DNA of 64,000 nucleotides from NCBI RefSeq assembly GCF_001669775.1, contig NZ_LXWK01000011.1:558001-622000 (forward strand), in the 5' to 3' direction. The number at the start of each line of letters is the position of its first letter. The first letter of the stretch is position 1. The position numbers were made by a program, and so were the translations under genes. The DNA comes from Rheinheimera sp. SA_1. Lineage in GTDB: Bacteria; Pseudomonadota; Gammaproteobacteria; Enterobacterales; Alteromonadaceae. The notes beneath the pieces are model-generated. The model was not told the DNA's origin, made no database searches, and saw nothing but the letters and a program-made list of their open reading frames with translations. Below are positions 5,958 to 64,000 of this stretch, piece by piece.

Positions 5958-6071
5958 GATGTTGTCCTTTTCACTGAATAAATACCAGGCCGGTGCGATG
6001 CACCGGCATTTGGTGATACGAAGCCCGCCTGGCTGACATTGCCGGGCTTGGCCTTTCCCGGTTCACAGCCA

Positions 6072-9968: not shown

Positions 9969-10076
9969 CTTCTTGCCTCCTTGTCGTTCAATGAAAAAGT
10001 TGGCTGCGAATGCTCCCAGCCGCCAGATGTTTAAAAATGACTGTACCAAAATAACAGCTTAAATCTTTATGGCAAG

Positions 10077-47700: not shown

Positions 47701-50633
47701 AGTTGCTGGTCATTGTTGTGCTGAAACAGACGGACGGCCGCTTGCCTGATACCGGGTATATGGCTGATCGCATGCACGATGTCATCCAGCTCCACACGGA
47801 ATCCGCGTAGTTTAATCTGATTGTCGGTTCGTCCTTTGTAAATCAGTTGCCCCTGATGGTCCCAGCACACCAAATCCCCGGTCCTGTACAGACGATGGGT
47901 CCGGTTATCCGCCAGCATGATATTGACAAATCGTTCGCGGGTCAGCTCCTCTGCATGATAATAGCCGGTTGCCAAACCGGCGCCGCCAACATAAAGTTCG
48001 CCAGTACAACCTGGTGGCATCAGCCGACGATGCCGGTCGAGTATAAACAACTGATTGGCGGACAACGGTCCGCCAATTTGTGGTTGCGTGGAGCATGCAG
48101 CTAAATCACAGTATGACGCGTAAACGGTGCACTCCGTCGGTCCATAGGCATTGAAAATCCTACAACCAGTAGTTTGGGCCAGACGTTGTAAACGTTGCCA
48201 CATCGCCTCACTGATCCCCTCACCCGCAACCAGAAAACACTTTGGTAAATATCGGAGCAGGGTGGCATCCATGGTATCTAGTATTAGTTGGAAATAACTG
48301 GGCGTACAATCAAATACAGCAATCGGATAACTCTGCCAGAAGTTCCAGAGTTGTTCCAGATCTTGCTTTTGTTCATCGGTCACCAGCCTTAAAGTTGCAC
48401 CGAAATATAACTGCACGATCTGGGTGACGGATACATCAAAAACCAGCGAGGCATTAACAGCAATATTGGTTTCCTCGCGATACCAATCGCCGGCATTGAG
48501 GATTTGTTGCTGAACAGCCCGCCCCTGATTAAGAATCGCGCCATGCGATACGGCAACTCCTTTTGGAGTGCCGGTCGAACCCGAAGTAAAAATTACATAG
48601 GCTAACGCGTCTGGCGCGACAGTCCCAAGTTGAGGGACAGCATCGGCAACTAACCACTGCGACTCATCAAACAAATCCAGCATTTGCTCCGGTCGCTGTA
48701 GCGCACTCCAACTGGTGGCTTCAGATAACACTAATGACACCCGGGCTTTGTCAAGGATTTGGCCAATACGTTCCGGCGGATGACGCACGTCCAGTGGTAA
48801 ATAGGCAACGCCGGCTTTCCAGCAAGCTAACATCGCCAGAATACTGCGACTGCATTTTCGGCTATAAAGCGCCACGACCGCGCCCGATGTCACACCCATC
48901 GCTTGAATAGTCGCCGCCAGTTGATCGCTGCGTTGCGCTAACTGAGCAAAAGTGAAGTGGGTGGTATCGCAAGAAACGGCCGTACGATGCGGAACCATCT
49001 GAGCAAGTCTGGCAAACGTCTGCAGATAGCCGTCGTCCGAGGCTGCCAGTGGTTTCGTTTGTCCCCAACTGAGCACAGTGTCAGTCTGCGTTTTAGGCAA
49101 CAAATGGAGTTGCTGCAACCCGGTATCACACTGTTGCAACAGCTGCGGGATAGCAAACGCCATCTGCTCAAGCATCTGTGTAGCCCAGGGTTCAGCCACC
49201 CTTTGCTGATCAAACACTAGCTCTAATCGGAACCCGGTTGACTTTTCAACCACATAAAACGCCAGTGGAAACTTCGGGGCTAATTGGCGACTGCCAAAAG
49301 CGCTGACCTCAAGAGCAGAGTGTTGTGCGTATTCGGTCGACTCAGCAATGTTTTGTTCCCGGTGAAAGCTATAGAGCACCTGAAAAATAGGGTGCTGATC
49401 CTGCTGACGTTCAACCACCAGTTGGGTGACCAACTCTTCAAATGCAACATCCTTATGATCAAAAGCCTGCAAATAGGTCTCTTTCGCTTGCGCCAGTAAA
49501 GACACGAACGACTGCTGCTCATCTATCTGGCTACGCAACACCAGAGTATTCACGAAGTAGCCCAACAAACCTTGCAACTGTGTCTGATCCCGGTGACTAA
49601 CCGGGGTCCCCAGCACGATGTCGCTTCGATCCTGCGCACGTGCGAGTAATAAACTGAACAGACTGTAAAAAAACACGGCATGCGTGGTCTGGTGCTGTCG
49701 GCAGAAGCCGGTGATAGCATCACTCACGGCCGGCTCCAACGCCATTTTCGCCGAGCCAGCGACTTTGGGCACAATCTCAGTTGGTGCAAATGGGTGAAAC
49801 TGCAGGGGCTCCGGTAACAGACTGAGCTTTTGTTGCCAGTACGCTAATTGTCGTTGCTGTTCGGCCTGCCCCTTGTGCTGCCGCTGCCACAAACAATAAT
49901 CCAGATACTGGATGGGTAAATCTGTCACTGCTGGGCGACGCCCGTGACTAAACGCTATATAGGCCGATAAAAGCTCCTGTTTGAACAGCTCTAATGAGTG
50001 GCCATCCATAATCAAATGGTGGAAATTACAGGCAAACACATAATGATCAGCAGCAAGTTGTAGAAGCATCGCACGCCACAATAGTCCCGTCAGATCAAAA
50101 GGCGTATTCGCGTCGGCTTTGACCCGCGTTGATGCCTCTGCAACCGGATCAGCTGATGTCGTAAGGTCAACGTAGTGATAACAGAGTGGCTGTGTTGAGA
50201 CTGATAAGACGACTTCTTGCCCTGCTTCTTGGACACAACAACGCAGCAGTTGATGCCGTTCAGCCATCCAGAACAGCGCTTCGCGAAACGCATCGGGCCC
50301 GAACCGTCCTTTAAAGCTGACACTCAATGGCATGTTGTAACTGGACTCATCCACCAGCGCCATGTTGGCGGTTAGCCAGAGCCCACGCTGATAAACAGAA
50401 AGAGGCGCCACCGTCGCATCGGTACGCGGTATGACCGCGCTGCCCGCCCGGGCATTGCTCAACGTCAATTCAGCGATCAGGGCGGCTTTTTGCTGCCTGA
50501 TCTGCTGACGCAAAGCATCCGTTAATTTGCCCTGTGGCGCATGCACACGCAATTCGCTGCCATGCACAGAGAGCTGGATTTGGTTATCAGCCAGCTCTCT
50601 GAACAAGGATATTGTTGTTCCTTCTGCATTCAT
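44754..50633 (-). CDS. terminal NRPS: TubC-C-A-T-C-T-TE
   Basis: This 1959-aa synthetase releases the product. Domains: TubC-type docking domain (1-~55, start FRELADNQIQLSVHGSELRV); condensation with HHLIMDG (~208); adenylation with A3 TSGSTGTPKGVAVSH (~686), A5 NAYGPTE (~829), A10 TINGKLD (~1024); carrier with WHFGVHSLLF (~1076, Ser present but GG altered to GV); condensation with MHHLFSDGWS (~1266); carrier with RYGGHSLLTM (~1637); thioesterase with LGHSFGGN (~1774). The second module has no adenylation domain. Specificity residues read by eye for the A domain are D-V-T-D-L-A-A-V-Y-K, which I cannot match to a known substrate. Lies downstream of the TEII gene in the same direction. Confidence 0.93.
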   Translation of the reverse strand: MNAEGTTISLFRELADNQIQLSVHGSELRVHAPQGKLTDALRQQIRQQKAALIAELTLSNARAGSAVIPRTDATVAPLSVYQRGLWLTANMALVDESSYNMPLSVSFKGRFGPDAFREALFWMAERHQLLRCCVQEAGQEVVLSVSTQPLCYHYVDLTTSADPVAEASTRVKADANTPFDLTGLLWRAMLLQLAADHYVFACNFHHLIMDGHSLELFKQELLSAYIAFSHGRRPAVTDLPIQYLDYCLWQRQHKGQAEQQRQLAYWQQKLSLLPEPLQFHPFAPTEIVPKVAGSAKMALEPAVSDAITGFCRQHQTTHAVFFYSLFSLLLARAQDRSDIVLGTPVSHRDQTQLQGLLGYFVNTLVLRSQIDEQQSFVSLLAQAKETYLQAFDHKDVAFEELVTQLVVERQQDQHPIFQVLYSFHREQNIAESTEYAQHSALEVSAFGSRQLAPKFPLAFYVVEKSTGFRLELVFDQQRVAEPWATQMLEQMAFAIPQLLQQCDTGLQQLHLLPKTQTDTVLSWGQTKPLAASDDGYLQTFARLAQMVPHRTAVSCDTTHFTFAQLAQRSDQLAATIQAMGVTSGAVVALYSRKCSRSILAMLACWKAGVAYLPLDVRHPPERIGQILDKARVSLVLSEATSWSALQRPEQMLDLFDESQWLVADAVPQLGTVAPDALAYVIFTSGSTGTPKGVAVSHGAILNQGRAVQQQILNAGDWYREETNIAVNASLVFDVSVTQIVQLYFGATLRLVTDEQKQDLEQLWNFWQSYPIAVFDCTPSYFQLILDTMDATLLRYLPKCFLVAGEGISEAMWQRLQRLAQTTGCRIFNAYGPTECTVYASYCDLAACSTQPQIGGPLSANQLFILDRHRRLMPPGCTGELYVGGAGLATGYYHAEELTRERFVNIMLADNRTHRLYRTGDLVCWDHQGQLIYKGRTDNQIKLRGFRVELDDIVHAISHIPGIRQAAVRLFQHNNDQQLVAYYLSADGQALDSVDLTAALQEKLPFYMLPNQWIQVERMPMTINGKLDMRALPAPGQVEQCYVAPADEIEIVLAQIWQELTGQPQISVEQSLWHFGVHSLLFMWASMKLQNQLKLKVSVKELFDRSTIRLQAALCRERLLTGNAVELAIRRRGELQAPMSYRQLSFWLSEALSPPDTGDFNMSYSVLIKGPLDVGVLKESFVRLIARHETLRTNVIRNDNQQQLSVQPAHRMNWQFWDFRRHIKPDAAIENIVQNEHLRSFDLQYELPLRLHVFQLANDKFVLCMTMHHLFSDGWSMQVIRKDLVRIYTALSEQREPELPELSVQYNDYAYWLNQQYQAGELSVQKEYWRVKLADLSPQFYPPLPELIEQIPVKTVVKELQLGPVLSQRLRQLAAQNNTTIYATLLASYQLMLTKVSGITDVVVVTPFAERESPELEQLVGFFVNTLILRNQIDMNADFITLVRQVRDCCVEAFSNAQIGYHEVIAMAREINGNATLLDDNIMFAFKRVELSQAKTATLFENWEISPYFDYVRHNVGRMTCSWLDNGAELKCSMMFRQDLVSDEFQQLLFDHYLQLLTNLVQAPQQALQDVPWTGKPLAQAPQLSAAINLDASDALSYVSRTAVLTEEQLQIRNLWAKLLCMESQDIDLDTEFFRYGGHSLLTMELLAALRLQFGIEGDAAALLRSNTVRKQEQYLRSLQHSAPKQVQCKVQMSGNPLNEPILFLAPALGASVSSYQSLVAALAADFRIGLLSTPGIDQFTTAENDCHDWPLNSRLRQYLHNILTHQPEGPYTLLGHSFGGNIMFELAVLLELRGHQVQLILLDSILGAIDPAETPMSTSQFMQSRLPGSVHYRIADQSSALTPSELFSQLRLCGLMPDSFSEEAFGGYLRAVQSQLQFYYSYHPSNRLAGKVTLIEATQGLAIHPRQHQIRKYIQQYATETIRIVEAPGSHVGVAEHPALASIIKNLMLNGSDTYGMVR

Positions 50634-50685: not shown

Positions 50686-51420
50686 CTACAAGTGCCTGCA
50701 CAGGACCGACATAAAGTGTTTGTCTTGTTGCAGATAAAAATGATCGCCATCAAACAGCTGGCAACTGAACGACTGTGATGTGTGCTGCTGCCATCCCCTG
50801 AGTTCCTCCACAGTCACCATCGGATCCCGGATACCACCCATAGCAACAATCGGACATCGCAACGGAGAGCCCGGTAGGTAGGCATAGGTTTCATTCACGA
50901 GAAAATCTGCGCGCAACTGCGGTAACAAGAACTGCATCAGCTCCTGATCCTGTAGAAACTCAACCGGAGTACCGTTTAACAAAGCTAATTCATCGATGAA
51001 ATCCTGATCCGACAGAGCATGCGTCACAACGCCCTGTCCCGGCAGATGTGGGCCTCGTTTTGCAGAGACAATCAGAGACTGCGGCGATAGATCCAGCTTA
51101 CTCCGCAGCATCCGGGCCAGCTCATACGCTAACAGCGCCCCGAGACTATGTCCGAAGAACACAAAAGGTTTATCCAGATATGGTTCAATACTGTCAAACA
51201 ATGTGTCAACAATTGCAGTGAGACTGGTCATTGGGGGTTGATCCAACAGGTTTTCCCGCCCTGGCAACTGCACAGCAATTAATTCGATGTCTGCGGGCAA
51301 GCACTGCGCCCAGTGCCGGTAAAAACCCGCACCGCCACCGGCAAATGGGAAACAAAAAATTCGTTTGGTGGCATGTTCCCGCTGTTGCCAACGAACAAAG
51401 TAATTCATGAACTCGCTCAT
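50686..51420 (-). CDS. type II thioesterase
   Basis: This 244-aa alpha/beta hydrolase removes wrongly loaded or stalled groups from NRPS carrier domains. It shows FCFPFAGGGAGFYRHW near the N-terminus, nucleophile motif FGHSLGALLAYELA (~residue 93), and the C-terminal FDGDHFYL with catalytic His. Typical of proofreading TEIIs in NRPS clusters. 52 bases separate it from the terminal NRPS. Confidence 0.92.
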   Translation of the reverse strand: MSEFMNYFVRWQQREHATKRIFCFPFAGGGAGFYRHWAQCLPADIELIAVQLPGRENLLDQPPMTSLTAIVDTLFDSIEPYLDKPFVFFGHSLGALLAYELARMLRSKLDLSPQSLIVSAKRGPHLPGQGVVTHALSDQDFIDELALLNGTPVEFLQDQELMQFLLPQLRADFLVNETYAYLPGSPLRCPIVAMGGIRDPMVTVEELRGWQQHTSQSFSCQLFDGDHFYLQQDKHFMSVLCRHL

Positions 51421-51453: not shown

Positions 51454-51657
51454 TTATGCCTGCTTCAGCGCATTTCTTAAACTAAGTGGCCGAATATCAG
51501 TCCAGATGGTTTCGATATGCCGCAAGCATTCCTCCTTATTGCCAGTAGTTCCCTCAGCGGTCCATCCCAATGGCAACTCGCGCTCCGCAAACCAAATCGA
51601 ATATTGCTCTTCGTGATTCATGACCACCTTATATTGTTGTTCAGTTGTATTTTGCAT
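51454..51657 (-). CDS. MbtH-like protein
   Basis: A 67-aa MbtH family protein that binds and activates NRPS adenylation domains. Diagnostic residues: NHEEQYSIWFAERELPLGW, then WTAEGTTGNKEECLRHIETI and WTDIRPLSLR. GGGGGATAAGC before ATG. Its presence suggests at least one A domain here depends on MbtH. Confidence 0.96.
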   Translation of the reverse strand: MQNTTEQQYKVVMNHEEQYSIWFAERELPLGWTAEGTTGNKEECLRHIETIWTDIRPLSLRNALKQA

Positions 51658-51671: not shown

Positions 51672-54095
51672 TTACACATGTCGAAGCGCCACAATTGGCT
51701 CAGTTTTGATAGCTCTGACGATCGGCAGCAGCGACGCCACCAGAACAACCAGCGCCAGCGTAAAAAACACTAGAACTAAGGATGTCAGATCAAAAGCACT
51801 GACCCCATAGATTTGACTGGCCATCACACGGCCGAGACCAACACATAACACAGCACCAATCAGGCTGCCGAACAAATACTGACGGTAAGTCCGGGTCAGC
51901 AACATGGTTGCTAATTCTTTTGGGGTCGCCCCTAACGCCTTCCGGATCCCCAGCTCTTTGCTTTGTCGACTAAGGTTGTAGCTTAGAGTCCCAAAGATCC
52001 CAAATGCTGATAACATCACTGCCACCGAAGCAAATCCACTATAGATTTTTGCCATCAGCGCATCCAGCAGATAACTCTGCTCAATGGCCTGGTCTAATGT
52101 ACGCAGAAAGTAGGCTGCGATTTCAGCATCCGCGCTTTTAATCATTTGTTGCAGCGCGTTAATAGCTGTGTTCGCTGGTAACATTGTGCTGGCCATCACA
52201 CTGACAAAACTCTGATTTTGTTGTAGCAACGGCATATACAGTACGGCTTTGACCTCATCGCGGACATCGCCGTGCACAATATCGCTGACAACCCCAACAA
52301 TTGTTGCCCATGGATGGTTTTCCGTAGCCAGTCCTACCCGAATCTTCTGACCGATGGCACTGTCAACATCAGGCCACCATTGCTGCGCAAAAGTCTGATT
52401 GACCACCACCACCGGTGTAGAGTCAATTTTGTCCCGACTGTCGATAATACGCCCCGCCAATAGCTTACTGCCCGCCATTGCAAAAAAAGCACCATCCACG
52501 CTCACTGACTTGCTGACTGGATAATCCGACAGTTTAGAAACTGCCCGGCCCCCCAGCGTGTAGTATTCCGGAGGCGCAGCAATTCCCGGCAAACTGGTGG
52601 TTAAAGCAAACGCACTGATTTGAGGATTGCTTTGTGCCTCGTATTTCAGCCGCTCGATAAAACGATGCCGCGCTTCAACCGTTGCGTAATTCGCAGTATC
52701 CAATGCCACCCGCCCAGTAGCGGTCACCCCTGGTAGGTGTTGTTGCGTTGTCTGATTGATCTGCTGACCGCTTTGTAACATCAGTACTGATGAGTACAGC
52801 AATGCAAATGACAGACTGATCTGCACCAAGGTCAGTCGTCCGCCAACTTGTTGAGCACTACCGGGGTTTTGCGGCATTTCCTTCATCAGTAACATCAGAT
52901 TAGGACTGGCTGAGCGTAACGCCGGATACAATCCGGTCAGCATGGCTGCGGTACAAATCAACACACAACTAAATAACACTACAGCGCTATCTAACTGATA
53001 CGTAACCCAAAATGGCATACTACCTGCTTGGCTCAATAAGTTCTTTCCGGTCCAGGCACCCAGCCAATATCCCAAGGGCACCCCAAGTACCCCCCCGCCC
53101 ATAGAAATAATTAAACTCTCTAAAACCTGACGGAAAATAAACCGGCGACGGGTTGCTCCAAGAGCCGCATGAATGGCTGTCTCACGCATCCGGGCTGCAC
53201 CTTTGGCGAGAATCAGATTACCGACGTTCACGCAGGCAATCAGCAAGACAAATACACTGGCAGTCAACAGGGTGTAGATGATGATTTTCGTCTGAAACGA
53301 ATTCAAACGGGTAAATTCTTCCGTATAGGGTTTAACCTCTGCAGAATAGCCCTCGTTGGTCTCTGGATACTGGGTCGCCAAGTCCTGCATGATGGAGGCA
53401 AGCTCCGATTTCGATGCAGCCATTGAGACTCCGGACTTGAGCAGACCCAAGACCTCTAAACCAATCCCATCGCGGCGTTTTGCTTCCAGTTTGTTAAAGT
53501 TCACCGGTATCCAAACGTACTGGTCAACCGGAAAACGATACCCTGTCGGCATCACTCCAATAACCGTGTGGGTATTCCCATTGACCCGCAGAGTTTTACC
53601 AATCACACTCGGATCCTTGCGGAAAAACTCTTGCCAGACCACATCGCTAATCACAACGACCTGGGCACTGCCCGGCAAGGTATCATCTGCGGTGAATCCC
53701 CGTCCAAGCAAGGGACGAACCCCGGTGACTTCAAACAGGTTCGAGGTCACCACCGCCGAATTGTAACGGGTGCCGCTTTGTCCAACCGATAAGGTCGCGA
53801 ACGATGGATAATACGCTGCAAAAACCGCAAAGCTCTGCTGTCGCTCCTCCCAGTCGAGAAAATCCCGATAGGTTGCTGCCGTGGTGCCGCCGGTATTAAC
53901 GCGAAACTCTAAATGCATTAACCGCTCAGCGTCTTTAAAAGGCAATGTTTTATAGTAATAACCCTGAATAGCGCTGAACATATAAATGGTAGCCGACAAT
54001 CCGAGGGCGATTCCTGCGACTGATAGCAACGAAAACAGCCAGCTATGCCGCAACGACGACCAGACCTGTATTAACTCGATACGAATGACTGTCAT
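51672..54095 (-). CDS. MacB-like ABC permease with duplicated FtsX/MacB_PCD units
   Basis: This 807-aa membrane protein has no ATPase domain. It has an N-terminal helix (SLLSVAGIALGLSATIYMFS), a periplasmic MacB_PCD-like domain (VTGVRPLLGRGFTADDTLPG) and three helices with the GAARMRETAIHAALGATRRR motif. The same plan is repeated (MAGSKLLAGRIIDS; then SRQSKELGIRKALGATPKEL), in the style of the long duplicated permeases. Works with the separate ATPase (11 bases upstream) and the adaptor as a tripartite exporter, as in PvdRT or MacAB; substrate presumably the cluster's peptide (inference). Confidence 0.87.
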   Translation of the reverse strand: MTVIRIELIQVWSSLRHSWLFSLLSVAGIALGLSATIYMFSAIQGYYYKTLPFKDAERLMHLEFRVNTGGTTAATYRDFLDWEERQQSFAVFAAYYPSFATLSVGQSGTRYNSAVVTSNLFEVTGVRPLLGRGFTADDTLPGSAQVVVISDVVWQEFFRKDPSVIGKTLRVNGNTHTVIGVMPTGYRFPVDQYVWIPVNFNKLEAKRRDGIGLEVLGLLKSGVSMAASKSELASIMQDLATQYPETNEGYSAEVKPYTEEFTRLNSFQTKIIIYTLLTASVFVLLIACVNVGNLILAKGAARMRETAIHAALGATRRRFIFRQVLESLIISMGGGVLGVPLGYWLGAWTGKNLLSQAGSMPFWVTYQLDSAVVLFSCVLICTAAMLTGLYPALRSASPNLMLLMKEMPQNPGSAQQVGGRLTLVQISLSFALLYSSVLMLQSGQQINQTTQQHLPGVTATGRVALDTANYATVEARHRFIERLKYEAQSNPQISAFALTTSLPGIAAPPEYYTLGGRAVSKLSDYPVSKSVSVDGAFFAMAGSKLLAGRIIDSRDKIDSTPVVVVNQTFAQQWWPDVDSAIGQKIRVGLATENHPWATIVGVVSDIVHGDVRDEVKAVLYMPLLQQNQSFVSVMASTMLPANTAINALQQMIKSADAEIAAYFLRTLDQAIEQSYLLDALMAKIYSGFASVAVMLSAFGIFGTLSYNLSRQSKELGIRKALGATPKELATMLLTRTYRQYLFGSLIGAVLCVGLGRVMASQIYGVSAFDLTSLVLVFFTLALVVLVASLLPIVRAIKTEPIVALRHV

Positions 54096-54106
54096 TTCAA
54101 CCTCGA

Positions 54107-54811
54107 TCAGAAATTGGCGGCAGATTTGGTTTTAACCGCCAGCGTGGCGATCCGACCATCATGCAGATGGATGTTCCGCTGTGCTAGATTGGTGTATCGC
54201 TCATCATGGGTAACCATACAAATCGTCGACCCTTCACGATGTAAAGCTGCCAGTAATTCCATCACCGCAGCCCCGTTTGCAGAGTCCAGGTTCCCAGTTG
54301 GCTCATCGGCCAACAGCACTTTGGGGTCGGTCGATAACGCTCTGGCGACGGCAACTCGCTGCTGCTGGCCACCGGATAACTGCCCCGGATAGTGTTTCAG
54401 TCGATGCACCATATTAACCTTCTCCAGCGCATACATTGCTTTTTGTTTGATTTCTTGCTGGTTGAGCCGCCTCTGATAAATCAATGGCAGCGCGACATTA
54501 TCAAACACTGATAACTCAGGGATCAGGTTAAATGACTGAAAAATAAAGCCAATATCTCGATTGCGGACCTGAGCCCGCTGGGTTGCATTAAGCTCTGTTA
54601 CGTCGGAGCCATTTAGTTTATATACACCGCTGCTGCAAGTATCCAATAAGCCCAAAATGGATAGTAATGTCGATTTACCACACCCCGACGGGCCGGTGAT
54701 GGAGACAAACTCTCCCTGCATTACTTGCAACGAAACCTGACTCAGGGCATGGGTATCCATTTCGTCGGTGACAAAAACCTTATTGATCTGCTCCAATTCA
54801 ATCACATTCAT
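54107..54811 (-). CDS. ABC ATP-binding protein, MacB/LolD type
   Basis: This 234-aa ATPase has Walker A SGPSGCGKSTLLSILG-like (residues ~38-53 read ITGPSGCGKSTLLSIL), Q-loop FIFQSFNLIPEL, signature LSGGQQQRVAVARAL and Walker B VLLADEPTGNLDS. GGAAGG before ATG. Energises the neighbouring permease. Confidence 0.93.
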   Translation of the reverse strand: MNVIELEQINKVFVTDEMDTHALSQVSLQVMQGEFVSITGPSGCGKSTLLSILGLLDTCSSGVYKLNGSDVTELNATQRAQVRNRDIGFIFQSFNLIPELSVFDNVALPLIYQRRLNQQEIKQKAMYALEKVNMVHRLKHYPGQLSGGQQQRVAVARALSTDPKVLLADEPTGNLDSANGAAVMELLAALHREGSTICMVTHDERYTNLAQRNIHLHDGRIATLAVKTKSAANF

Positions 54812-54920
54812 GATGGCCTTCCAACTCTTTGATGGGTGTATTCATGTAGAACCAATTGCTCGCAAGCCGGCATCAATGTCTGACAGCGTGCTGCCGGGAT
54901 TGACCTGCAAGCAGCTTGAT

Positions 54921-56171
54921 TCATTCGGTTAATTTCAGCTCTATGTTATCAAACCACTGCGCCATATCGGTTAAGATGATTTGATCACCCGGTTGCAATC
55001 CTTCCAGCACCTGGATAGCGGAAGAAGATGCTTTACCAAACTGCACCTGGGTTCGTGCTGCACGATGACCGTTCTTGTTCAGTTTGAACACAAAGCCGGA
55101 ACTGCCGGGCGCTGTTGCGGCCGGCTTCTTGACAAATAGCACATTCTGCAATGTCTCCACCGCGATCTCTGCATCAACACTTAAATCTGGTCTGACTCCC
55201 GCCGGTAACGGTTCGGTCATCGCAATATCGACCTGAATAGTGCCATTGGTCACTTTAGGATCAACACGAATCACTTTCCCGGATAGCCACTCGCTTCGGG
55301 TATCCACCTTGGCCTGCTGTCCTATCTGTAATTCACGCCCCAACGCTTCCGGGACCTGGATTTCAACAATCAGGTCCTGCATATTCACAATGCGCGCGAC
55401 ATCCGAGCCCATCAACAGGTTTTGCCCTTTTAATGCGGTCAGCTCCTGCACTACCCCCTTACGATCGGCGACAATCAGTAACGAGTTCACATCCTTCTGT
55501 CGTGCAGTCAACACATTATCCAACAGCGCTACTTTAGCCTCCTGCGCACGAATCTGAGCATCAAAGGAGTCTTGCAACTTCGCCAGCTTGGTCTCTTCCA
55601 GTTTCACCACAAATTTATCCTGCTTCACTTTTAACTGTGTCCGCTCAAAAACCACCCTCGGGATAATGTTGATCTTTGCTAATTCAGCCTCGGAGTCCAT
55701 TTGTAATTTATTACTTAAGTAGGCGGTTTTGGCCTGGGCCAACGCACTTTCCTGATTCAGACGCTCACTCGTGAGTTTGCCCCTCAACACGGTGAGCTCG
55801 TCTTTCGTCACATTTAACTCAAGCGACGCTTCCTCGACCTTTTGCAATAGTTGACGGTTAAACAACTGCAGGAGAGGCTCGCCCGGTTCGATGGTATTGC
55901 CAGGTTTGACGAATACTTTCTCGACAATGCCGTCGACTTCAGATGTCACCCAAGTAACCTCCCGCGGCGCAAACACGCCGGTTCCCCTCACTTTCCGATG
56001 GAAGTCGCCTTGCTCTACTTTATCGACAATCAGAGTATCTTTGGCCACAAATGGCACTGCATCAGCCAGTTGCAGATAAGCGACCACCACAATGCCTAAT
56101 ATAACCAGTCCAGCAAGGTTCCATTTATTTTTTAACACGGCAGTACGTTGTTTTGTTTTTACTACATCCAT
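54921..56171 (-). CDS. HlyD/MacA-like periplasmic adaptor
   Basis: This 416-aa adaptor has a single N-terminal helix (WNLAGLVILGIVVVAYLQLA), lipoyl half-motifs (EVDGIVEKVFVKPGNTIEPG and IVADRKGVVQELTALKGQNL) and a long coiled-coil hairpin between (~110-230, from VEEASLELNVTKDELTVLRG). It then has barrel domains. Forms the periplasmic part of the exporter with the two downstream genes. 32 bases after the upstream NRPS gene; weak ribosome site. Confidence 0.9.
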   Translation of the reverse strand: MDVVKTKQRTAVLKNKWNLAGLVILGIVVVAYLQLADAVPFVAKDTLIVDKVEQGDFHRKVRGTGVFAPREVTWVTSEVDGIVEKVFVKPGNTIEPGEPLLQLFNRQLLQKVEEASLELNVTKDELTVLRGKLTSERLNQESALAQAKTAYLSNKLQMDSEAELAKINIIPRVVFERTQLKVKQDKFVVKLEETKLAKLQDSFDAQIRAQEAKVALLDNVLTARQKDVNSLLIVADRKGVVQELTALKGQNLLMGSDVARIVNMQDLIVEIQVPEALGRELQIGQQAKVDTRSEWLSGKVIRVDPKVTNGTIQVDIAMTEPLPAGVRPDLSVDAEIAVETLQNVLFVKKPAATAPGSSGFVFKLNKNGHRAARTQVQFGKASSSAIQVLEGLQPGDQIILTDMAQWFDNIELKLTE

Positions 56172-56203: not shown

Positions 56204-59200
56204 CTAAAATGATTCAGTGATCAGCTCTTCCTGGCTTTGGCTGGGATCACTACTGCGATACACCTGACGGATCTGCACACTGCGGTCGATCAACGCAGCC
56301 TGCTCCTGAAAATTGGGGGTCCGCATGATATCCCGAATCGTCAGTTGTAATGCAAAATGCTCGTTGAGCAGGTAACTCAACTTCACAGCCGCCAGAGAAT
56401 TACCGCCTAAAGCAAAAAAGTTCGACAATCGCACCGAAGCGTCCAGATGTAAAATCTGTTGCCATAGGCCTGCTAAAATCAGTTCAGTATCCGTTTGCAG
56501 TGCTGTTGTTTGCCCTGAAACATCCAAATCCCGCTTAACCAGTGCTTGCAGGGTCCGCTGATCGACTTTTCCTGAGCTTGTCAGTGGGATCTGGGCCACA
56601 TTCATCACCACCGCGGGCACCATATACTCGGGCAGTTGGGTTTGCAGGTCTTGCTTTACTGCTGCTGCCGACCGCTCTGAAACGATAAACGCACACAACA
56701 TTTTCGTTTGCGCAGACATTTCAACCACTAAAATCTCAGCTTGCTGGCAACCGAGCTGTCGCATTTTGGCGGCAATTTCATGCGGTTCAATTCGAAAGCC
56801 GCGGAACTTAATCTGAGAATCGACCCGTCCCAAAATTTCAATTGAACCATCCTGACGTTGCAGTGCCAGATCACCTGTCGCATAAATTCTGCTTTCAGTC
56901 GTCACCGCCGTGTTAAACGGATTGGGCAAAAACGCTGCGGCCGTCAGACCAGGAGCTTGATGATAACTGGTTGCAAGGCACAGACCGCTGATATAAAGCT
57001 CGCCAACCATGCCAACAGGTTTCGACTGTAAATCAGCTGTACAAACATAGCAAGAGGCATGCGGAAGATTCCGGCCGATGCTGACTCTGCTGGCAACCGC
57101 TGTACCTGCAGCAGATGCAAGCGGTATCGCGCCGTCTGAAACCGTAATGGTTGTTTCGGTCGGACCATAATTATTGAGTAAACGCACAGCTGGCAGCACC
57201 TGTAGCCATTGTTTCACAGCAACCGGGCTCGCCGGCTCCCCGGCAATAGCGACAGATTTGAGGGCGGCAAACGCCTGTCTCACGTGTGAGTCAAGACCTG
57301 CACAAATCGCATGCCAGTAACCGGTTGGCAACCGTAACCGGGTGATCTGATAGTGTTGCAATACTGCAATAAAGTCGGTGACCGAAATGTCCTTGTCTTG
57401 TGGATACAACACCACGCTGGCGCCAGCCCACAAGGTGGCAAAAATCTCCTCAATAGACAAGTCAAAAGATAAAGTATTGAATTGTAATTGATTATCAGTT
57501 TGGTCCAGCCCTGCGACCGCGACCCAGCTTTGGCAGTAGGCATCCAGTGTTTTTTGTGGGACGACCACTGTTTTGGGAGTGCCGGTACTACCAGACGTAA
57601 ACAACACATAAGCCGGCCTGTCCGGACAAGGGGATGGCGCTCGGTAAGTCCCATCTGTGTGGCTATCTGCAAACAAAGTCGTCGTCATCAGCGAAGGGAC
57701 GGTATCGGCTAACAAAGAGAAACGCTCAGACCGACAAATCAGTAAATCTGGTTTTGCCAGCTCGAGCAACATCGACAGACGTTGGTCCGGTAGCTCAGGC
57801 AGCAACGGCATCACGCCGCAACCTGATTTGAGAATTGCAATGTACATCAGCATCGTATCGAGATCTCTGATAGCCTCGATTGCGATAATCGCATGCTTGA
57901 TGGTCAATTGCCACTGTAGCCGCAGAGCCAGCCGGTCGGTGATCTCATCCAATTGAGAGTAGCTGATCGTTCGCTCGCCCTGTCTGAACGCAATCTGTGC
58001 TGTGGTCGCGGCAAAATGACGGATGCGTTGTAAAACAGGCATAGCGGGCGGCGTCATCGCACCAGCAAACGACTGCCCAGGCTGCGTCTGGATGAGCTGG
58101 GCCTGAATAAACTGGCAAAGGCTCGTCTGCAAAAAGCTCGGTTCAGCACGCTGTTGCCAGCAAAGATGCAACCGCTGCATCAACAGATCCATTGTGGCAG
58201 CTTGATAGCGCGCGCTGTCGTACCACAGCGAGCACCGATTGTCGGGTCCCTCCTGCTCCAATAACAAAATAAGACCCAGTGACACATGCTGTTCAAATAA
58301 TTGTTTTACAGACAACTGCCCAGCATCAGCAGGCGTTGACGACATCACGATGATCGCAGGCGTAAAGTCAGTGCAACGGGCCAATACCTCAGAGCCGTCA
58401 GCCAACTCCACCTGATGACACCACACAGCAAATTGTGATTGAAAGGCCGCCAACTGCGCACCATTTAGCTGCGGTCCGTTAAAATCGACTGCAAGTGGTA
58501 ACACCCCTGCAGCCGGACCAACAACCCCCACACTGAAATTCGTCTGATGGGTATAGATGGCAAGCAACATTGCCACAACGCCGAACAATGCAGGTTCATC
58601 AGTCTTGTCAACCGACAGGATCTGCTGACATAACGCGATCTTTTTAGCTGGCTCCCTATGCCAATCTGCCGGGAATGCCAGAGGAACAGGTGCCAGTTGA
58701 GCCTGCCAAAACATCTGGCGCTGCTGCGATTGCTGATACTGGGGCGTGTCCCGGTAGCAAACACTATTGATCGGCCATCCAGGGGCACGCAGCAATGCCT
58801 GATCATCGCTGCCACACCAGCTTAACGTAGTTAATGGCACAGTCGGGTAGTTTAATACCGACTCACTTAACTGGATAAAACTACGCGCCAATGCCTCAAT
58901 CCGGACACGTTCAAACAAATCGGTTGTGTAGTGGATCCAGCCTTGCAGCCCTTGCGAGGTTAGCTTGAAGACAAAATTGAGGTCAAAATTTGCGTTCTCC
59001 ACCATGTTTTTCATATCAAACTGTGCGGCCGTCACAGGCTGCGTCTGCCGCCCGATGTTGTCATCACCCGGTTGCGTGAGTTTCATCACCAAACAGACCT
59101 GACTAACGGGCTCATAACTGGAGTCCCGCACCGGCTGTATATCGGCAACCACCTGCTGAAATGGAAATCCTTGATGGCTAAAGCCATCTTGCACTGTCAG

Positions 59201-60556
59201 TTTATTCTGTTCCAGCAAGGCAGAAAAGTTGTTAGAGAAGTCAATTTTAGCTCTGAAGATCAATGAATTAAGGCAAGGTCCGACCATGTTTTTAAAGGCT
59301 GGATTAGCCCGATTGGCAACCGGCGAGTTAATGCAGATATCGGCTTGATCACTATAGTTGGCCAATAGCAGCTGGACAATGGTCAGGTACAACATAAAAG
59401 GCGATGCGCCCCGTTGCTGGCCAAACTTCTCTAACCGCGTACTAAGCTCAGTGGGGACAGTAAATCCGACAACAGCCCCTTTAAAACTACGTTTTTCCGG
59501 GCGATATCGGTCCGAAGGTAACACCAACAGAGGCGGGCTCCCCTGCAGCTGGTGTTGCCAGTACTGTCTTGAGCCTGCAGACGAAGCACGACCGGCAACT
59601 TGTCGTTCCCAAAATGCGTAATCACGATAATCAAACGGGACTGCCGGTAATGAGACTGTCGGCATCCCGCTGTATTGGCGGTATAAACTGACAAACTCTT
59701 TGTTCAGAACATCGTTTGACCATGCATCGGTAGCAATGTGATGCAAGGCAATCACCAGAACCGCATGCCTGGCGTCGCACTGCAACAGACCAAAACGAAT
59801 GACATCGCCGGCACTGAGCTGAAATGGCTGTTTACAAAATGTGCTGATTTGCCGCTCGACCCAATCACTGTCAGGCACAACGGCAGTCGGCGCAGCCCAA
59901 TCCTGGTTCAGCTGATGTAATGGCAGCGGCTGAGGCGGCATCACGCGCTGAAACAACTGTTCACCTTTGAGAAAAAATCCGGTGCGCAGCACCGGGTGAC
60001 GAGCCACCAGCTCGTTACAAACCCGTTCAACCAACACGGCATCCACTACAAAACCGGACAGCGGCAAGACTATCTTTACATTGTAGATACCGTCTACCTG
60101 CTCCAGTTGTTCCACCAGCCAAAGCCTCTCCTGAAAAAATGAGGCAAGAACTTCGGTATCAGGTGGCGCTTTGCTGACTATTTGCTGACTAGCCGCCTGC
60201 ACTTTGGCCCCTGCAATGATAACAGGCTTGTATTGGCGTAAGGCTGCAATCTCAGTGCTGCTAAGCGGTTCAGCGGACCGGACCTGTAACTGGTTGCCTT
60301 GCAGAATCATCGAGGCTTTTTTAGTCGTCAGTTGTTCGAGCAACTGTAAAAAGGCTGGCTCGAATTGAGGATTGGTCTGCGTTTCATAATGACGGGTATA
60401 CAAATCGATCATTGCATTTTTATGGATCCGTATTGCCGCATCTATAGCGGGCGTCATAGCACCTGGCGGCACATGACAACGGAGCTTGCCATCTGCCACC
60501 TCGAATCTGATGGCGGCTTTGGTCGTCTGTTCAAGCAGTTCTGCTAATGTCAGCAT
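56204..60556 (-). CDS. NRPS with tandem TubC docking domains: TubC-TubC-C-(degenerate C)-A-T
   Basis: This ~1450-aa synthetase carries two TubC-like docking repeats: ~1-55 (FEVADGKLRCHVPPGAMTP) and ~65-120 (MILQGNQLQVRSAEPLSS). A condensation domain with HHIATDAWS (~274) follows. Residues ~590-825 resemble only the C-terminal half of a second condensation domain (FWQAQLAPVPLAFPADWHRE) and lack HHxxxDG. The adenylation domain has A3 TSGSTGTPKTVVV (~992, final Gly changed to Thr), A5 NNYGPTETTI (~1130) and A10 TSSGKVDQ (~1332). The carrier has FFALGGNSLAAV (~1385). Specificity residues by eye: D-L-E-R-A-A-N-I-T-K, no match known to me. Start ATG 60556 is preferred since it begins the docking domain; the open frame to 60619 would overlap the upstream gene. 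Confidence 0.9.
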   Translation of the reverse strand: MLTLAELLEQTTKAAIRFEVADGKLRCHVPPGAMTPAIDAAIRIHKNAMIDLYTRHYETQTNPQFEPAFLQLLEQLTTKKASMILQGNQLQVRSAEPLSSTEIAALRQYKPVIIAGAKVQAASQQIVSKAPPDTEVLASFFQERLWLVEQLEQVDGIYNVKIVLPLSGFVVDAVLVERVCNELVARHPVLRTGFFLKGEQLFQRVMPPQPLPLHQLNQDWAAPTAVVPDSDWVERQISTFCKQPFQLSAGDVIRFGLLQCDARHAVLVIALHHIATDAWSNDVLNKEFVSLYRQYSGMPTVSLPAVPFDYRDYAFWERQVAGRASSAGSRQYWQHQLQGSPPLLVLPSDRYRPEKRSFKGAVVGFTVPTELSTRLEKFGQQRGASPFMLYLTIVQLLLANYSDQADICINSPVANRANPAFKNMVGPCLNSLIFRAKIDFSNNFSALLEQNKLTVQDGFSHQGFPFQQVVADIQPVRDSSYEPVSQVCLVMKLTQPGDDNIGRQTQPVTAAQFDMKNMVENANFDLNFVFKLTSQGLQGWIHYTTDLFERVRIEALARSFIQLSESVLNYPTVPLTTLSWCGSDDQALLRAPGWPINSVCYRDTPQYQQSQQRQMFWQAQLAPVPLAFPADWHREPAKKIALCQQILSVDKTDEPALFGVVAMLLAIYTHQTNFSVGVVGPAAGVLPLAVDFNGPQLNGAQLAAFQSQFAVWCHQVELADGSEVLARCTDFTPAIIVMSSTPADAGQLSVKQLFEQHVSLGLILLLEQEGPDNRCSLWYDSARYQAATMDLLMQRLHLCWQQRAEPSFLQTSLCQFIQAQLIQTQPGQSFAGAMTPPAMPVLQRIRHFAATTAQIAFRQGERTISYSQLDEITDRLALRLQWQLTIKHAIIAIEAIRDLDTMLMYIAILKSGCGVMPLLPELPDQRLSMLLELAKPDLLICRSERFSLLADTVPSLMTTTLFADSHTDGTYRAPSPCPDRPAYVLFTSGSTGTPKTVVVPQKTLDAYCQSWVAVAGLDQTDNQLQFNTLSFDLSIEEIFATLWAGASVVLYPQDKDISVTDFIAVLQHYQITRLRLPTGYWHAICAGLDSHVRQAFAALKSVAIAGEPASPVAVKQWLQVLPAVRLLNNYGPTETTITVSDGAIPLASAAGTAVASRVSIGRNLPHASCYVCTADLQSKPVGMVGELYISGLCLATSYHQAPGLTAAAFLPNPFNTAVTTESRIYATGDLALQRQDGSIEILGRVDSQIKFRGFRIEPHEIAAKMRQLGCQQAEILVVEMSAQTKMLCAFIVSERSAAAVKQDLQTQLPEYMVPAVVMNVAQIPLTSSGKVDQRTLQALVKRDLDVSGQTTALQTDTELILAGLWQQILHLDASVRLSNFFALGGNSLAAVKLSYLLNEHFALQLTIRDIMRTPNFQEQAALIDRSVQIRQVYRSSDPSQSQEELITESF

Positions 60557-60593
60557 GGGAGTACCTATTGTTTTATTATTCGGGACGTAACGA

Positions 60594-62471
60594 TCAGACA
60601 GCAACATGATAAGCCGCATTGTCGATGGTTAGTCCCCACAATTGCTGGAGTAGCGCCAGAGCGTCAATACACTGCGCCATCTGCTGTACAGTCGGCTGAG
60701 CGCCCAGTAAATCAGCCGTGACGTCAATATGTAATTCCAGCCGAATCCGTTGTGCCGCCAGTTGCAGCTGTTCGACCGTGCCACCAAGCCGGTAGAAATT
60801 ATCAGCTGGCTGCAGGGGGCTTTGCTGCAGAATATCCTGCAGGATTTGCAGCAAAGCCGCCGCATGAACAGCGGGCCGCTCCTCCACACTGTCAGCAGGC
60901 ACCGCCGGCAATGTCCACTGGCTGAGGATTTTACGGTCGATTTTGCCATGTGTGTTAATGGGAAGTGCCGCGTGATACACATAGTGGGCAGGTACCATAA
61001 ACTCAGGCAGTTTTTGCTGTAACAACTGACGAAGTTCAGCCGGGTTGGGTTCAGCCACAGCCGAATAATGCGCCACCAGGCACTCGCTGGTCGCGTGCTT
61101 CACGACTGCCACATCGTTCATGCCTTTGTAAGCGCTCAGGTGAAACTCAATCTCGCCCAGTTCAAGCCGAAATCCGCGCAGCTTAACCTGGTTGTCAATG
61201 CGTCCCAGGTACTCAAGCGACCCTTCCGCCTGAAACACCGCGCGATCACCAGTACGGTAAAACACCGGGCCATCCGGCCAATCCGGTAGGACCACAAATT
61301 TTAAGGCGGTTTGCGCCGGATTGTCGTGATAACCGGCGCTCACAGCAGGCCCGGTCACTAACACTTCGCCGGGACCGTCGACCACAGGCTTTAACTGTGC
61401 ATCCACCAGCACCAGCAGACCCGACGATAAAGGTCGGCCAACGAGGTTACTTTGCAAGGCGGTAGGCGTCAGCTGACCCACCGTGATCACCACAGTCGCT
61501 TCCGTCGGCCCATAGCTGTTAAACAGCGCCATACCAGCGGGTACCGCACTGAACCAGGCTTGCAAGCGTTTTTTATCGTAAGATTCACCGCCGATGATAC
61601 AAAGCCGTAATGAGGTTTCAGTGAGATCGGCGCTGTGCAATTGGTCGCAAATCACGTGCCAGTATGCGGTCGGCAAACTAACTGCGGTAATTTGCAACTG
61701 CTTGACGGTTTGCCAGAACTGGTCGCTACTGGCCAGAATATCTTCCGGCCGCACCACCAAGCATGCGCCACTGAATAATGTTAAGCCCAACTCTTCAATA
61801 AAGGTATCAAAGCTCACTGAACAAAACTGCAGGATCCGGTCCTGTGCCGAGATTGCATAACACTGATGCACTGCCGCCAGATAATTGGCGATATTTTGGT
61901 GACTGACAACCACTCCCTTCGGCTGACCGGTAGTCCCGGAGGTGTACATGATATAGGCTGCGTGATTCAAGGGCACGTGTTCAGGTGCCAGATCTGCCAC
62001 CTGAGTGGCACGCCATAATTCATCAGTTGTCACTAACTGGTGGGCGGGGAAATCAAACCGGCGACCGAACGTTTCTGAGGTAATCCAGGCGTCCGGTTGA
62101 CCATCCACCAGAATTTGCCTGATGCGCGCATCCGGATACTTGGGATCAATCGGGATGTACGCCGCCCCTGCACGCTGAATCGCAAGTAAACTGACTATCA
62201 GCTCAATGCCGGGCGCAACACTGAGCGCGACCCGACTGATCGACGGTCCAAACTTCGCTAGCAGCGCCCGGCTTATAGTCGTGACCTGCTCATCGAGCTG
62301 CGCATAGCTCAACACGATTTGACCATACTCCAGTGCCGCTGCTGCCGGTGCTGTGGCGGCCCGCATCGCCAACAAGCCCGCCAGCGAAAACGACAATCCG
62401 CTCGCCTGTTGCTGCCACTGTTGCGACAGCGCCGCATACTGTTGTTTTAAATCGGACAGATTTATGTTCAT
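60594..62471 (-). CDS. NRPS adenylation protein with serine-less carrier domain
   Basis: This ~625-aa A-T protein has a complete adenylation domain: A3 YTSGTTGQPKGVVVSH (~182), A5 NSYGPTEATV (~320), A7/A8 YRTGDRAVF (~405) with VKLRGFRLELGEIE, and A10 INTHGKIDRK (~510). The C-terminal carrier fold is recognisable but its core reads NFYRLGGTVEQL: the phosphopantetheine Ser after LGGx is Val, so it cannot be primed. Specificity residues by eye: D-T-E-S-I-G-S-V-V-K; like the next synthetase it shares Glu at the third position and the LPT(A/G)YWH motif. ATG 62471 follows GAGTG; GTG 62480 overlaps the upstream stop. It probably loads another carrier in trans. Confidence 0.9.
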   Translation of the reverse strand: MNINLSDLKQQYAALSQQWQQQASGLSFSLAGLLAMRAATAPAAAALEYGQIVLSYAQLDEQVTTISRALLAKFGPSISRVALSVAPGIELIVSLLAIQRAGAAYIPIDPKYPDARIRQILVDGQPDAWITSETFGRRFDFPAHQLVTTDELWRATQVADLAPEHVPLNHAAYIMYTSGTTGQPKGVVVSHQNIANYLAAVHQCYAISAQDRILQFCSVSFDTFIEELGLTLFSGACLVVRPEDILASSDQFWQTVKQLQITAVSLPTAYWHVICDQLHSADLTETSLRLCIIGGESYDKKRLQAWFSAVPAGMALFNSYGPTEATVVITVGQLTPTALQSNLVGRPLSSGLLVLVDAQLKPVVDGPGEVLVTGPAVSAGYHDNPAQTALKFVVLPDWPDGPVFYRTGDRAVFQAEGSLEYLGRIDNQVKLRGFRLELGEIEFHLSAYKGMNDVAVVKHATSECLVAHYSAVAEPNPAELRQLLQQKLPEFMVPAHYVYHAALPINTHGKIDRKILSQWTLPAVPADSVEERPAVHAAALLQILQDILQQSPLQPADNFYRLGGTVEQLQLAAQRIRLELHIDVTADLLGAQPTVQQMAQCIDALALLQQLWGLTIDNAAYHVAV

Positions 62472-62480
62472 CGTACACAC

Positions 62481-64000
62481 TCAATATTCAAAAGTATCGA
62501 AAGTTTCAGCGCTGGTAGTGGCGACGGCGTTGTGCTCGCGAATATGCATCATGGTCTCGAGGCAACTGCAAAAATCCTGCAAGGTCAGATTGTTAAACAA
62601 ATCCTGCGTGGTGACCGGCAAACCAAAGCGTCGCTTAATCTCGTCAATCAGCTGCATCGCCAGCAACGAGTGCCCGCCAAGGTCAAAGAAATTATGCGTC
62701 CGCCCGACCGCATCCACCTTCAGTAACTGCTGCCACAGACGGGCAACTAGCTGCTCGGTATGGCCCTGCGGTGGCTCAAAGTGTTGCCGGGTTAACTCAG
62801 CCAAATCCGGCACGGGCAGCCAACGATAGTCGATTTCGCCGTTTGCCGAGCGTGGTAAATCTGGCACAACCAGCAACCAATCCGGGGCAAAATATTCGGC
62901 AACCTGCCGTTTTACGGTGGCTTTTAGCCGCTCCGGCTGCAAACCATCGGTTTGCGTCCCCACCACAAAGGCTAGGATCCCGGTATGACCCCGCTCATCG
63001 GCCAGGTAGACTGCCGCCGCGGTTTTCACCCCATTCAGTCGACATAGAGCATTTTCGACCTGATCTAAATTGACCGAGAAGCCACGGATCTGGTGTTGCT
63101 GATGTTTGCGTCCCTGTAGACGCAGAGTGCCATCGGTGCTTGCTTTGGCCAGTACATCGCTGCAGCAGGTTTGATCCACCGCTGGCCAGCCTGTGGTCAG
63201 CACGGCGCCAACCGGGGTGGGTGCCACCCCTCCGGTACTGCAGAGCAAGCCCACTTTTTCCGGCAAACAGAGATTCCGCTGCTCATCCCGGCAAGATAAC
63301 TCGCGACCGGGCAGCGCAGTAAACCGCAATCGCTGCGGTGGTTCGGAAGGGAGTGTCGAGACCGCCTGAGTAAATAACCCGCCATGACTGGTCAACAACG
63401 CAAGAATAGTCGCCTCTGGCAATGCAGCGCGCAGTTTTGTCACCAGCGCATCCACCCAGCGTGAGCCCCGGCAGATCAGCCGGTTTAACCGAGGCCAGTC
63501 TTCATGTAATTCCGGATAGGCGGCGACCAGCTCTTCCAGCAGATGCCCGGAGCTTAGTAACCAATCAAATTGTTGCTGCTGACAGTAATCGACGAGGGCA
63601 AAGATATCACGACAAATACCCAGGGCCACCGGCCGCACCACACTCCCCGAAACAACCCCGAACCAAAGCAGTAACATCCGGTCAAAATCAGCCAGTGACG
63701 CCAGTAACGGAATCACCGGGGAAGCGCCACTGACTGCACTCTGGAGCAAGCTGACTTGGCTAAACACCTCGGTATCATGCACAGCCAGCCCCAACGCACC
63801 GGCCCCGTCGAGACGGACATACATCATCCGCGCCGGATGGCTACGCACTACCGTTACCTGCCGGTTGTTCACACTATGCAACTCTTCAATCTGAATGCGT
63901 CGCCGCGGCCAGGCAAGCCCAGTCTGCGAGATATTGCCCGTCAGCACGGTGAGTTGCTCCTGTACCCCTCTGGCAATCGGTATGGAGGCTGAGTCAAGCA
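62481..64000 (-). CDS. NRPS fragment: degenerate adenylation domain and intact carrier (5' end outside window)
   Basis: Open to the window edge; ~506 residues are visible. It aligns with an A domain but the key motifs are gone: the A3 ATP loop position reads MYVRLDGAGALGLAVH (63793-63834) instead of TSGSTGxPKG, the A5 position reads LLTSHGG instead of YGPTE, and A10 reads SANGEID, so the catalytic Lys is Glu. The overall fold pattern (IRGFSVNLDQVENAL at the A8 position) persists. The carrier domain is intact (NFFDLGGHSLLAMQL, Ser at ~62670). The stop TGA overlaps the GTG of the next gene, so translation is coupled. Its carrier must be loaded by another protein. Confidence 0.85.
   Translation of the reverse strand, partial: LDSASIPIARGVQEQLTVLTGNISQTGLAWPRRRIQIEELHSVNNRQVTVVRSHPARMMYVRLDGAGALGLAVHDTEVFSQVSLLQSAVSGASPVIPLLASLADFDRMLLLWFGVVSGSVVRPVALGICRDIFALVDYCQQQQFDWLLSSGHLLEELVAAYPELHEDWPRLNRLICRGSRWVDALVTKLRAALPEATILALLTSHGGLFTQAVSTLPSEPPQRLRFTALPGRELSCRDEQRNLCLPEKVGLLCSTGGVAPTPVGAVLTTGWPAVDQTCCSDVLAKASTDGTLRLQGRKHQQHQIRGFSVNLDQVENALCRLNGVKTAAAVYLADERGHTGILAFVVGTQTDGLQPERLKATVKRQVAEYFAPDWLLVVPDLPRSANGEIDYRWLPVPDLAELTRQHFEPPQGHTEQLVARLWQQLLKVDAVGRTHNFFDLGGHSLLAMQLIDEIKRRFGLPVTTQDLFNNLTLQDFCSCLETMMHIREHNAVATTSAETFDTFEY

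What the first reader, a model, noticed from the sequence alone, without database searches (positions are those of the whole stretch)
60594..64000. Complementary dead A and dead T domains in adjacent NRPS proteins
The right-edge protein has an adenylation domain without its ATP loop, without YGPTE and with the A10 Lys changed to Glu, but an intact LGGHS carrier. The next gene, translationally coupled to it, has an intact adenylation domain but a carrier core of LGGTV with no serine. Each protein lacks what the other has. The simplest reading is that the 625-aa protein loads the carrier of the upstream protein in trans, using its serine-less carrier fold only as a structural or docking element. 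A stand-alone A with a fossil T beside a fossil A with a live T is an unusual split-module design.
Basis: partly seen in the sequence, partly recalled or inferred. Interest (0 to 1): 0.82.

Follow-up and report, generated by a model that had tools for sequence, protein, structure and literature searches.

The report
Dead-A carrier served by neighbouring A
In a peptide-building assembly line of a bacterium, one enzyme module has lost its amino-acid-activating part but kept its carrier, and the next gene makes an activating enzyme that has lost its own carrier site; most likely the second loads the first, a new variant of a trick already known from a few pathways.

Summary
The right-edge gene (1078 aa, C-A*-T, running past the window end) has an eroded adenylation domain: 15 of 42 strongly conserved A positions, where 275 near-complete A domains keep at least 37; no ATP loop, no YGPTE, A10 Lys to Glu. 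Its condensation and carrier domains keep their motifs. The next gene (628/625 aa, A-T*) has an intact A (41 of 42) and a carrier without the serine. Direct trans loading of the 1078-aa carrier by this A is the best explanation (about 0.7), but unproved. Three things change the picture. (1) The pairing is not unique: the terminal C-T-TE of the 1959-aa protein, also in the window, has no A at all. (2) The arrangement recurs: this genome has five more eroded A domains on contig C19 with one free-standing A, and a second genome of the genus has three with a related free-standing A. (3) Precedents exist: albicidin, cystobactamid, SidD, WS9326A, and AngR (live A, dead carrier). The double loss in one neighbouring pair is a new variant of a known kind. 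No close relative of the dead A was found in samples of 22 (genus), 295 (family) and 369 (class) genomes.

The parts
62481..64000 (-). 3' part of the 1078-aa C-A*-T gene (aa 574-1078); the gene continues to G000:C1:623717, about 1.7 kb outside the window, with a C domain that keeps its HHxxxDG motif
62814..63998 (-). In-window part of the eroded adenylation domain A* (whole A* is about aa 509-968): no P-loop, no YGPTE, no TGD, A10 Lys to Glu; 15 of 42 conserved positions kept; predicted to keep the ANL fold
62559..62750 (-). Carrier (T) of the 1078-aa protein with LGGHS, Ser at 62667-62669
60594..62480 (-). A-T* gene, 628 aa from GTG (625 from ATG at 62471), directly behind the stop of the C-A*-T gene
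60924..62363 (-). Intact A domain, 41 of 42 conserved positions, specificity positions DTESIGSVVK (basic amino acid suspected)
60666..60857 (-). Serine-less carrier T*, core LGGTV at 60774-60788; above the Pfam PP-binding cut-off
56204..60619 (-). 1471-aa NRPS: TubC docking domain - C (58793-60154) - weak C-like remnant (about 58025-58777) - A (56567-58006) - T (56288-56476)
44754..50633 (-). 1959-aa NRPS: TubC - C - A - T - C - T - TE; the last C-T-TE has no A domain
45609..45806 (-). Second A-less carrier of the cluster (YGGHS), a rival or additional target of the A-T* protein
51454..51657 (-). MbtH-like protein gene (67 aa), possible activator of the cluster's A domains
50686..51420 (-). 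Stand-alone thioesterase (244 aa, type II-like)
51672..56171 (-). Export genes between the NRPS genes: membrane-fusion protein, ABC ATPase, MacB/FtsX-like permease (names by inspection, not scanned)

Best explanation
The pair is one NRPS module divided between two proteins. The A domain of the 628-aa protein makes an aminoacyl-AMP (a basic amino acid is suspected) and transfers it directly, in trans, to the phosphopantetheine arm of the LGGHS carrier of the upstream 1078-aa protein; the C domain of the 1078-aa protein then joins it to the chain that, by gene order, arrives from the preceding PKS protein. The serine-less carrier of the 628-aa protein cannot be primed at the usual residue, so a carrier-to-carrier shuttle as in cystobactamid or syringomycin is unlikely. 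The eroded A domain of the 1078-aa protein stays as a non-catalytic spacer or platform. The same A may also load the A-less carrier of the terminal C-T-TE. Shown here: the states of the motifs, the domain census, the recurrence of free-standing A plus eroded or A-less modules, predicted folds. Inferred: the loading itself, the substrate, the target carrier, the chain path, the role of A* and T*.
For: A* catalytic motifs lost, C and T of the same protein with their motifs; A of the next gene at 41 of 42 conserved positions though its own carrier has no Ser, most easily explained if it serves another carrier; adjacency; the only C-less NRPS A protein flagged in the cluster; 5 of 6 sources with a C-less A protein also hold A-less or eroded modules against 5 of 55 without (p 2.4e-4; 1.2e-3 without this cluster, 0.036 without the three sources of this genus that hold one); the tree sister of this A (support 0.894) lies in Vibrio sp. 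Of7-15 with two A-less C-T modules behind it in the same protein; MbtH gene in the cluster; codon usage of A* and T* like that of intact domains.
Against: No biochemistry. A second A-less carrier exists in the cluster, so the pairing is not unique. Other domains of the cluster are eroded too (C-like N-terminus of the 2951-aa protein, weak C remnant in the 1471-aa protein, no AT match in the second PKS module of the 3062-aa protein), which fits general decay. AMP-binding_C of the 628-aa protein lies just below the Pfam cut-off (22 against 24.5 bits). No orthologous pair was found, so conservation of the pair cannot be tested. Five of 55 sources hold A-less or eroded modules without a C-less A protein, and L022 has a C-less A protein without such modules. 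The sister relation in the tree has only moderate support.
Confidence: 0.7

Rival explanations
1. The 628-aa A serves mainly the A-less terminal C-T-TE of the 1959-aa protein (as SyrB1 serves the C-T-TE of SyrE), and the 1078-aa module is skipped or loaded by another A domain of the genome.
For: C-T-TE without A in the 1959-aa protein; the syringomycin precedent has this end architecture (PMC8949500, passages).
Against: The A-T* gene sits directly behind the dead-A gene and six genes away from the C-T-TE gene; one A can serve several carriers (CmnA-A1, PMC12400406), so this would not exclude loading of the 1078-aa carrier.
Confidence: 0.15
2. The locus is decaying: the dead A and dead T mark a module that no longer works, and the product is shortened or absent.
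For: Several eroded domains in one cluster; no orthologous cluster found.
Against: The large genes are open over about 69 kb; codon usage of A* and T* is like that of intact domains; the A of the 628-aa gene and the C and T of the 1078-aa gene keep their motifs; eroded A domains recur with Ser-bearing carriers in the C19 locus and in G013.
Confidence: 0.12
3. The serine-less carrier is primed at another residue (for example the Thr next to the lost position) and the 628-aa protein loads itself, then passes the residue on.
For: The carrier is still recognised by Pfam and predicted to fold.
Against: Read without a gap, the residue at the Ser position is Val, and the model alignment puts a gap there; priming at Thr in this position is not known to me (recalled).
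Confidence: 0.02
4. Sequencing or assembly error.
For: One assembly only; no second strain found.
Against: The divergence of A* runs over about 460 residues without a stop; the T* change lies in an otherwise ordinary carrier sequence in frame.
Confidence: 0.01

Closest known systems
Albicidin Alb04 / cystobactamid CysH with CysK module 3 (stand-alone A-T complementing an inactive in-line A)
   Same: In-line module with C and T but an inactive A (CysK A3 lacks the A10 Lys, PMC7966384 passages); a separate gene supplies the active A (PMC8949500 passages).
   Different: There the stand-alone module also carries a tailoring domain and its own carrier holds the residue, and in cystobactamid the shuttle CysB moves it. 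Here the stand-alone carrier has no Ser, so loading has to be direct.
Anguibactin AngR with AngM
   Same: AngR has a functional A and an apparently non-functional carrier, and loads the carrier of AngM (PMC5577590 passages).
   Different: By recall AngM is C-T without a fossil A; here the target protein still carries an eroded A. AngR also has a regulatory domain and a cyclization domain.
SidD / SidC inter-modular loading
   Same: SidD module 2 has a truncated, inactive A and its carrier is loaded by A1 (PMC10192304 passages).
   Different: Within one protein, and A1 keeps a working carrier of its own.
Capreomycin CmnA-A1 with CmnI; WS9326A Cal22/Cal23
   Same: A-less carriers served by A domains of other proteins (PMC12400406, first third of the text; PMC7539972, abstract and passages).
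   Different: The target modules lack the A domain entirely; in what I saw there is no mention of a serine-less carrier on the loading protein.

Membership tests
Trans-complemented inactive A domain (Alb04/CysH kind) | In-line module with C and T motifs kept but catalytic A motifs lost | tested here: met
Trans-complemented inactive A domain (Alb04/CysH kind) | Separate gene with an intact A domain in the same cluster | tested here: met
Trans-complemented inactive A domain (Alb04/CysH kind) | Stand-alone protein has a working carrier that holds the residue before transfer | tested here: not met
   LGGTV, no Ser
Trans-complemented inactive A domain (Alb04/CysH kind) | SyrC/CysB-type shuttle acyltransferase | not tested
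   No search with a SyrC/CysB model was made; genes of the cluster were read by eye and partly scanned with Pfam
Trans-complemented inactive A domain (Alb04/CysH kind) | Measured loading of the target carrier | not testable with these tools
   Needs purified proteins
AngR kind (live A, dead carrier) | A domain with its catalytic motifs fused to a carrier without the Ser | tested here: met
Pfam AMP-binding (for A*) | Score above the curated cut-off | tested here: not met
   22.9 against 29.9 bits
Pfam AMP-binding_C (for A*) | Score above the curated cut-off | tested here: met
   36.6 against 24.5 bits
ANL fold (for A*) | Predicted fold like solved NRPS A domains | tested here: met

The most novel reading that the evidence does not exclude
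In this genus assembly lines are repeatedly converted to 'one A, many carriers'. Once a separate A loads a carrier in trans, the now redundant domains erode on both sides: the in-line A by stages (C-to-T gap 504 aa in the 1078-aa protein, 351-397 in C19, 207-219 in G013, 108-115 in three foreign loci, 29-39 where only a linker is left), and the trans A's own carrier by loss of the Ser (this pair) or of the whole domain (the 499-aa and 511-aa free-standing A proteins). The pair in the window would be the earliest stage, with both fossils still full length.
Probability: 0.35. Interest if true: 0.62.

Novelty: new variant of a known kind. Interest (0 to 1): 0.45.

Why it matters
Cluster-prediction programs read modules by their A domains; a dead A with a live carrier and a live A with a dead carrier in neighbouring genes would be read as two faulty modules instead of one split module. 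If the erosion series is real, one free-standing A of the C19 locus could set the residue at five positions of one assembly line, so exchanging that one enzyme would change several residues at once: a natural test system for trans loading and for engineering.

Tried and rejected
Search for orthologues of the pair: A*-T in 22 genomes of the genus (8 of 22 incl. the own genome match at E<=1e-20; among the rows listed the only other match along the whole query, in G012, has an intact A); the N-part of A* in 295 genomes of the family at E<=1e-15 and 369 of the class at E<=1e-8, own genome only in both; the 628-aa protein in 295 of the order at E<=1e-80 (10 of 295 incl. own, best other identity 38%); the 1078-aa protein in genome contigs (51 loci, best segment at most 40%) and in plasmids (all 1255 records with a match under 60%). 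Family, order and class samples are drawn from larger groups and only a few candidates per genome are scored. No close relative, so no test of selection on A* or T* was possible.

The free-standing A of C19 in 295 genomes of the order at E<=1e-110: own genome only; I cannot tell whether G013 was in that sample. So the recurrence rests on two genomes of one genus plus looser cases elsewhere.

Idea that the 628-aa A arose from the free-standing A of C19: rejected, different clade. Idea that it is a copy of the A of the next gene (1471 aa): they fall in one clade of 8 with low support (0.661), left open.

Carrier comparison to decide which carrier the 628-aa A serves: not informative. Docking: the C-terminal tails of the 1078-aa and 1471-aa proteins (ending FDTFEY and LITESF) look alike and unlike the tail of the 628-aa protein, and the 1471-aa and 1959-aa proteins begin with TubC domains, which would let the chain pass from 1078 to 1471 without the 628-aa protein; by eye only, not tested.

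Codon-usage decay in A*: not seen. Substrate: the code DTESIGSVVK resembles, by recall, a Lys code; one paper on signatures was searched for such codes without a hit in its main text (PMC12283262, passages).

A paper on an Alteromonas bleomycin-like cluster (PMC3777966, passages; it marks one non-functional A domain in a figure) and one on depsipeptide HDAC inhibitors (PMC13324335, passages) gave no closer parallel. Search for a serine-less carrier: (0 papers); for AngR; PMC97060 on AngR is not held.
Full report
What is there. The window is G000:C1:558001-622000. On the minus strand it holds the downstream part of a hybrid NRPS/PKS cluster that runs from about 599.5 to 668.5 kb of contig C1. 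In the direction of transcription, from Pfam, my own models and inspection: a fatty-acyl ligase-like protein with carrier (709 aa; by inspection), a P450-like protein (431; by inspection), PKS (3062; KS-AT-KR-ACP-KS-[no AT match]-DH-KR-ACP), NRPS (2569; TubC-C-A-T-Cy-like C-A with insert-T), PKS (1754; KS-AT-KR-DH-ACP), TubC-C alone (543), a dioxygenase-like protein (324; by inspection), NRPS (2951; eroded C-A-T-C-C-A-T-C, two of the C domains E-like by inspection), NRPS (1064; C-A-T), PKS (1477; KS-AT-KR-ACP), the C-A*-T protein (1078), the A-T* protein (628), NRPS (1471; TubC-C-C remnant-A-T), export genes, MbtH, thioesterase (244), NRPS (1959; TubC-C-A-T-C-T-TE), an ABC transporter and a GMC-type oxidoreductase.

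The observation. Both halves hold. Of 42 positions conserved in at least 92% of A domains (defined on largely the same set), A* keeps 15; the 275 of 297 A domains with over 440 aligned residues keep at least 37 (median 41), the A of the 628-aa protein 41. The 628-aa carrier reads LGGTV and still passes the Pfam cut-off; its AMP-binding_C part is slightly below cut-off.

How unusual is it. In 51 loci brought in by similarity to the 1078-aa protein (so not a random sample), 180 C-to-T intervals were classed: 170 with an intact A, 10 with a gap under 200 aa (3 of these, with gaps of 108-115 aa, hold a weak A remnant), 0 with a long eroded A. In the own genome: this cluster 7 intact, 1 eroded, 1 A-less of 9; C19 28 intact and 5 eroded of 33; C1 960-1020 kb 11 intact of 11. 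Serine-less carriers: 2 of 299 after removing 5 of 7 flagged rows that show GGDS in the printed segment.

The same genome repeats the arrangement. The five eroded A domains of C19 sit in gaps of 351-397 aa between C and a Ser-bearing carrier and keep 3 to 7 of the 42 positions. Upstream of the C19 NRPS genes lies a free-standing 499-aa A protein with code DALWLGGTFK. A second genome of the genus, G013, has a free-standing 511-aa A (DAFWLGGTFK) and a 5903-aa NRPS with three A remnants (gaps 207-219 aa). The two free-standing A proteins are sisters (support 1.0, 50% identity); by recall the code is that of Val. The fetched stretches of G004, G006, G007, G015 and of a second G013 contig were not flagged for A-less or eroded modules. 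Over 61 sources, 5 of 6 with a C-less A protein hold A-less or eroded modules, against 5 of 55 without (p 2.4e-4); the exception is L022. In that count the 1078-aa module itself was missed by the threshold; the cluster counts through its C-T-TE. Without this cluster p is 1.2e-3, without this cluster, C19 and G013C32 it is 0.036. Sources are not independent (L055 and L056, both Streptomyces, look alike) and the loci are at most about 25 kb. The free-standing A of C19 had no other match at E<=1e-110 in 295 genomes of the order.

Which carrier. The 628-aa protein is the only C-less NRPS A protein flagged in the cluster, but two carriers lack a working A: that of the 1078-aa protein and the terminal one of the 1959-aa protein. 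Adjacency favours the first; one A can serve several carriers (CmnA-A1 and CmnI, PMC12400406). In the tree of 291 A domains the sister of the 628-aa A (support 0.894) is an A in Vibrio sp. Of7-15 (L058) with code DAESIGTVIK; in its protein two A-less C-T modules follow.

Context of erosion. Other domains of the cluster are eroded: the N-terminal C-like domain of the 2951-aa protein (70.7 + 18.3 bits, without the HHxxxDG motif), a weak C-like remnant in the 1471-aa protein (20.4 bits for the whole stretch, 9.2 for the best piece, in a search of four sequences), and the AT position of the second PKS module of the 3062-aa protein, where a model of the cluster's three AT domains gives no match. 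This supports general erosion of redundant domains and also keeps the rival 'decaying locus' alive.

Verdict. Observation confirmed, interpretation partly supported. Each single element is known: dead in-line A with a separate active A (albicidin, cystobactamid, ramoplanin, enduracidin: PMC8949500 passages), truncated A with its carrier loaded from another A (SidD: PMC10192304 passages), live A with dead carrier loading another protein (AngR: PMC5577590 passages), trans A proteins with an MbtH-like partner (WS9326A: PMC7539972 abstract and passages). I saw no report of both losses in one neighbouring pair in the listings of searches and the passages read; these cover open-licence papers only. 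New variant of a known kind.

Noticed in passing
G000:C19:7662-9158 and C19:21372-157007 (loci L097-L104): A very large NRPS locus with five eroded A domains (each before a Ser-bearing carrier) and one free-standing A protein (code DALWLGGTFK, Val-like by recall) upstream of it.
   Followed up: partly
G013:C32:96007-97539 and 110488-128196 (L113, L114): Same-genus genome with a free-standing A, sister of the C19 one, and an NRPS with three A remnants of about 150 aa before Ser-bearing carriers.
   Followed up: partly
window 44754-50633: Terminal NRPS ends in C-T-TE without an A domain; its first carrier has the unusual core FGVHS.
   Followed up: partly
window 4971-10049: Probable indigoidine-type blue pigment genes: a 1325-aa A-(insert)-T-TE protein beside an Indigoidine_A family protein (Pfam PF04227, 353.6 bits).
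   Followed up: partly
G000:C1:631345-640200 (L005:1346-10201): The 2951-aa NRPS carries two A domains with the same code (DLTKLGHVGK) and the same model scores, which suggests a recent duplication or conversion; its N-terminal C domain is eroded.
   Followed up: no
G000:C1:655809-664997, aa about 1950-2185 of the 3062-aa PKS: Second PKS module without a recognisable AT domain, although about 240 residues lie at the AT position.
   Followed up: partly
L032:11511-14714 (Rhodanobacteraceae ZG21-1): NRPS protein that begins with a carrier whose core reads LGGEEAS, without the Ser at the usual place.
   Followed up: no
L021:2913-17362 (Nocardiopsis sp. ATB16-24): An A-T protein (code DAQDLGVVDK) directly before an NRPS with three A-less C-T modules that share the same carrier core.
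   Followed up: no
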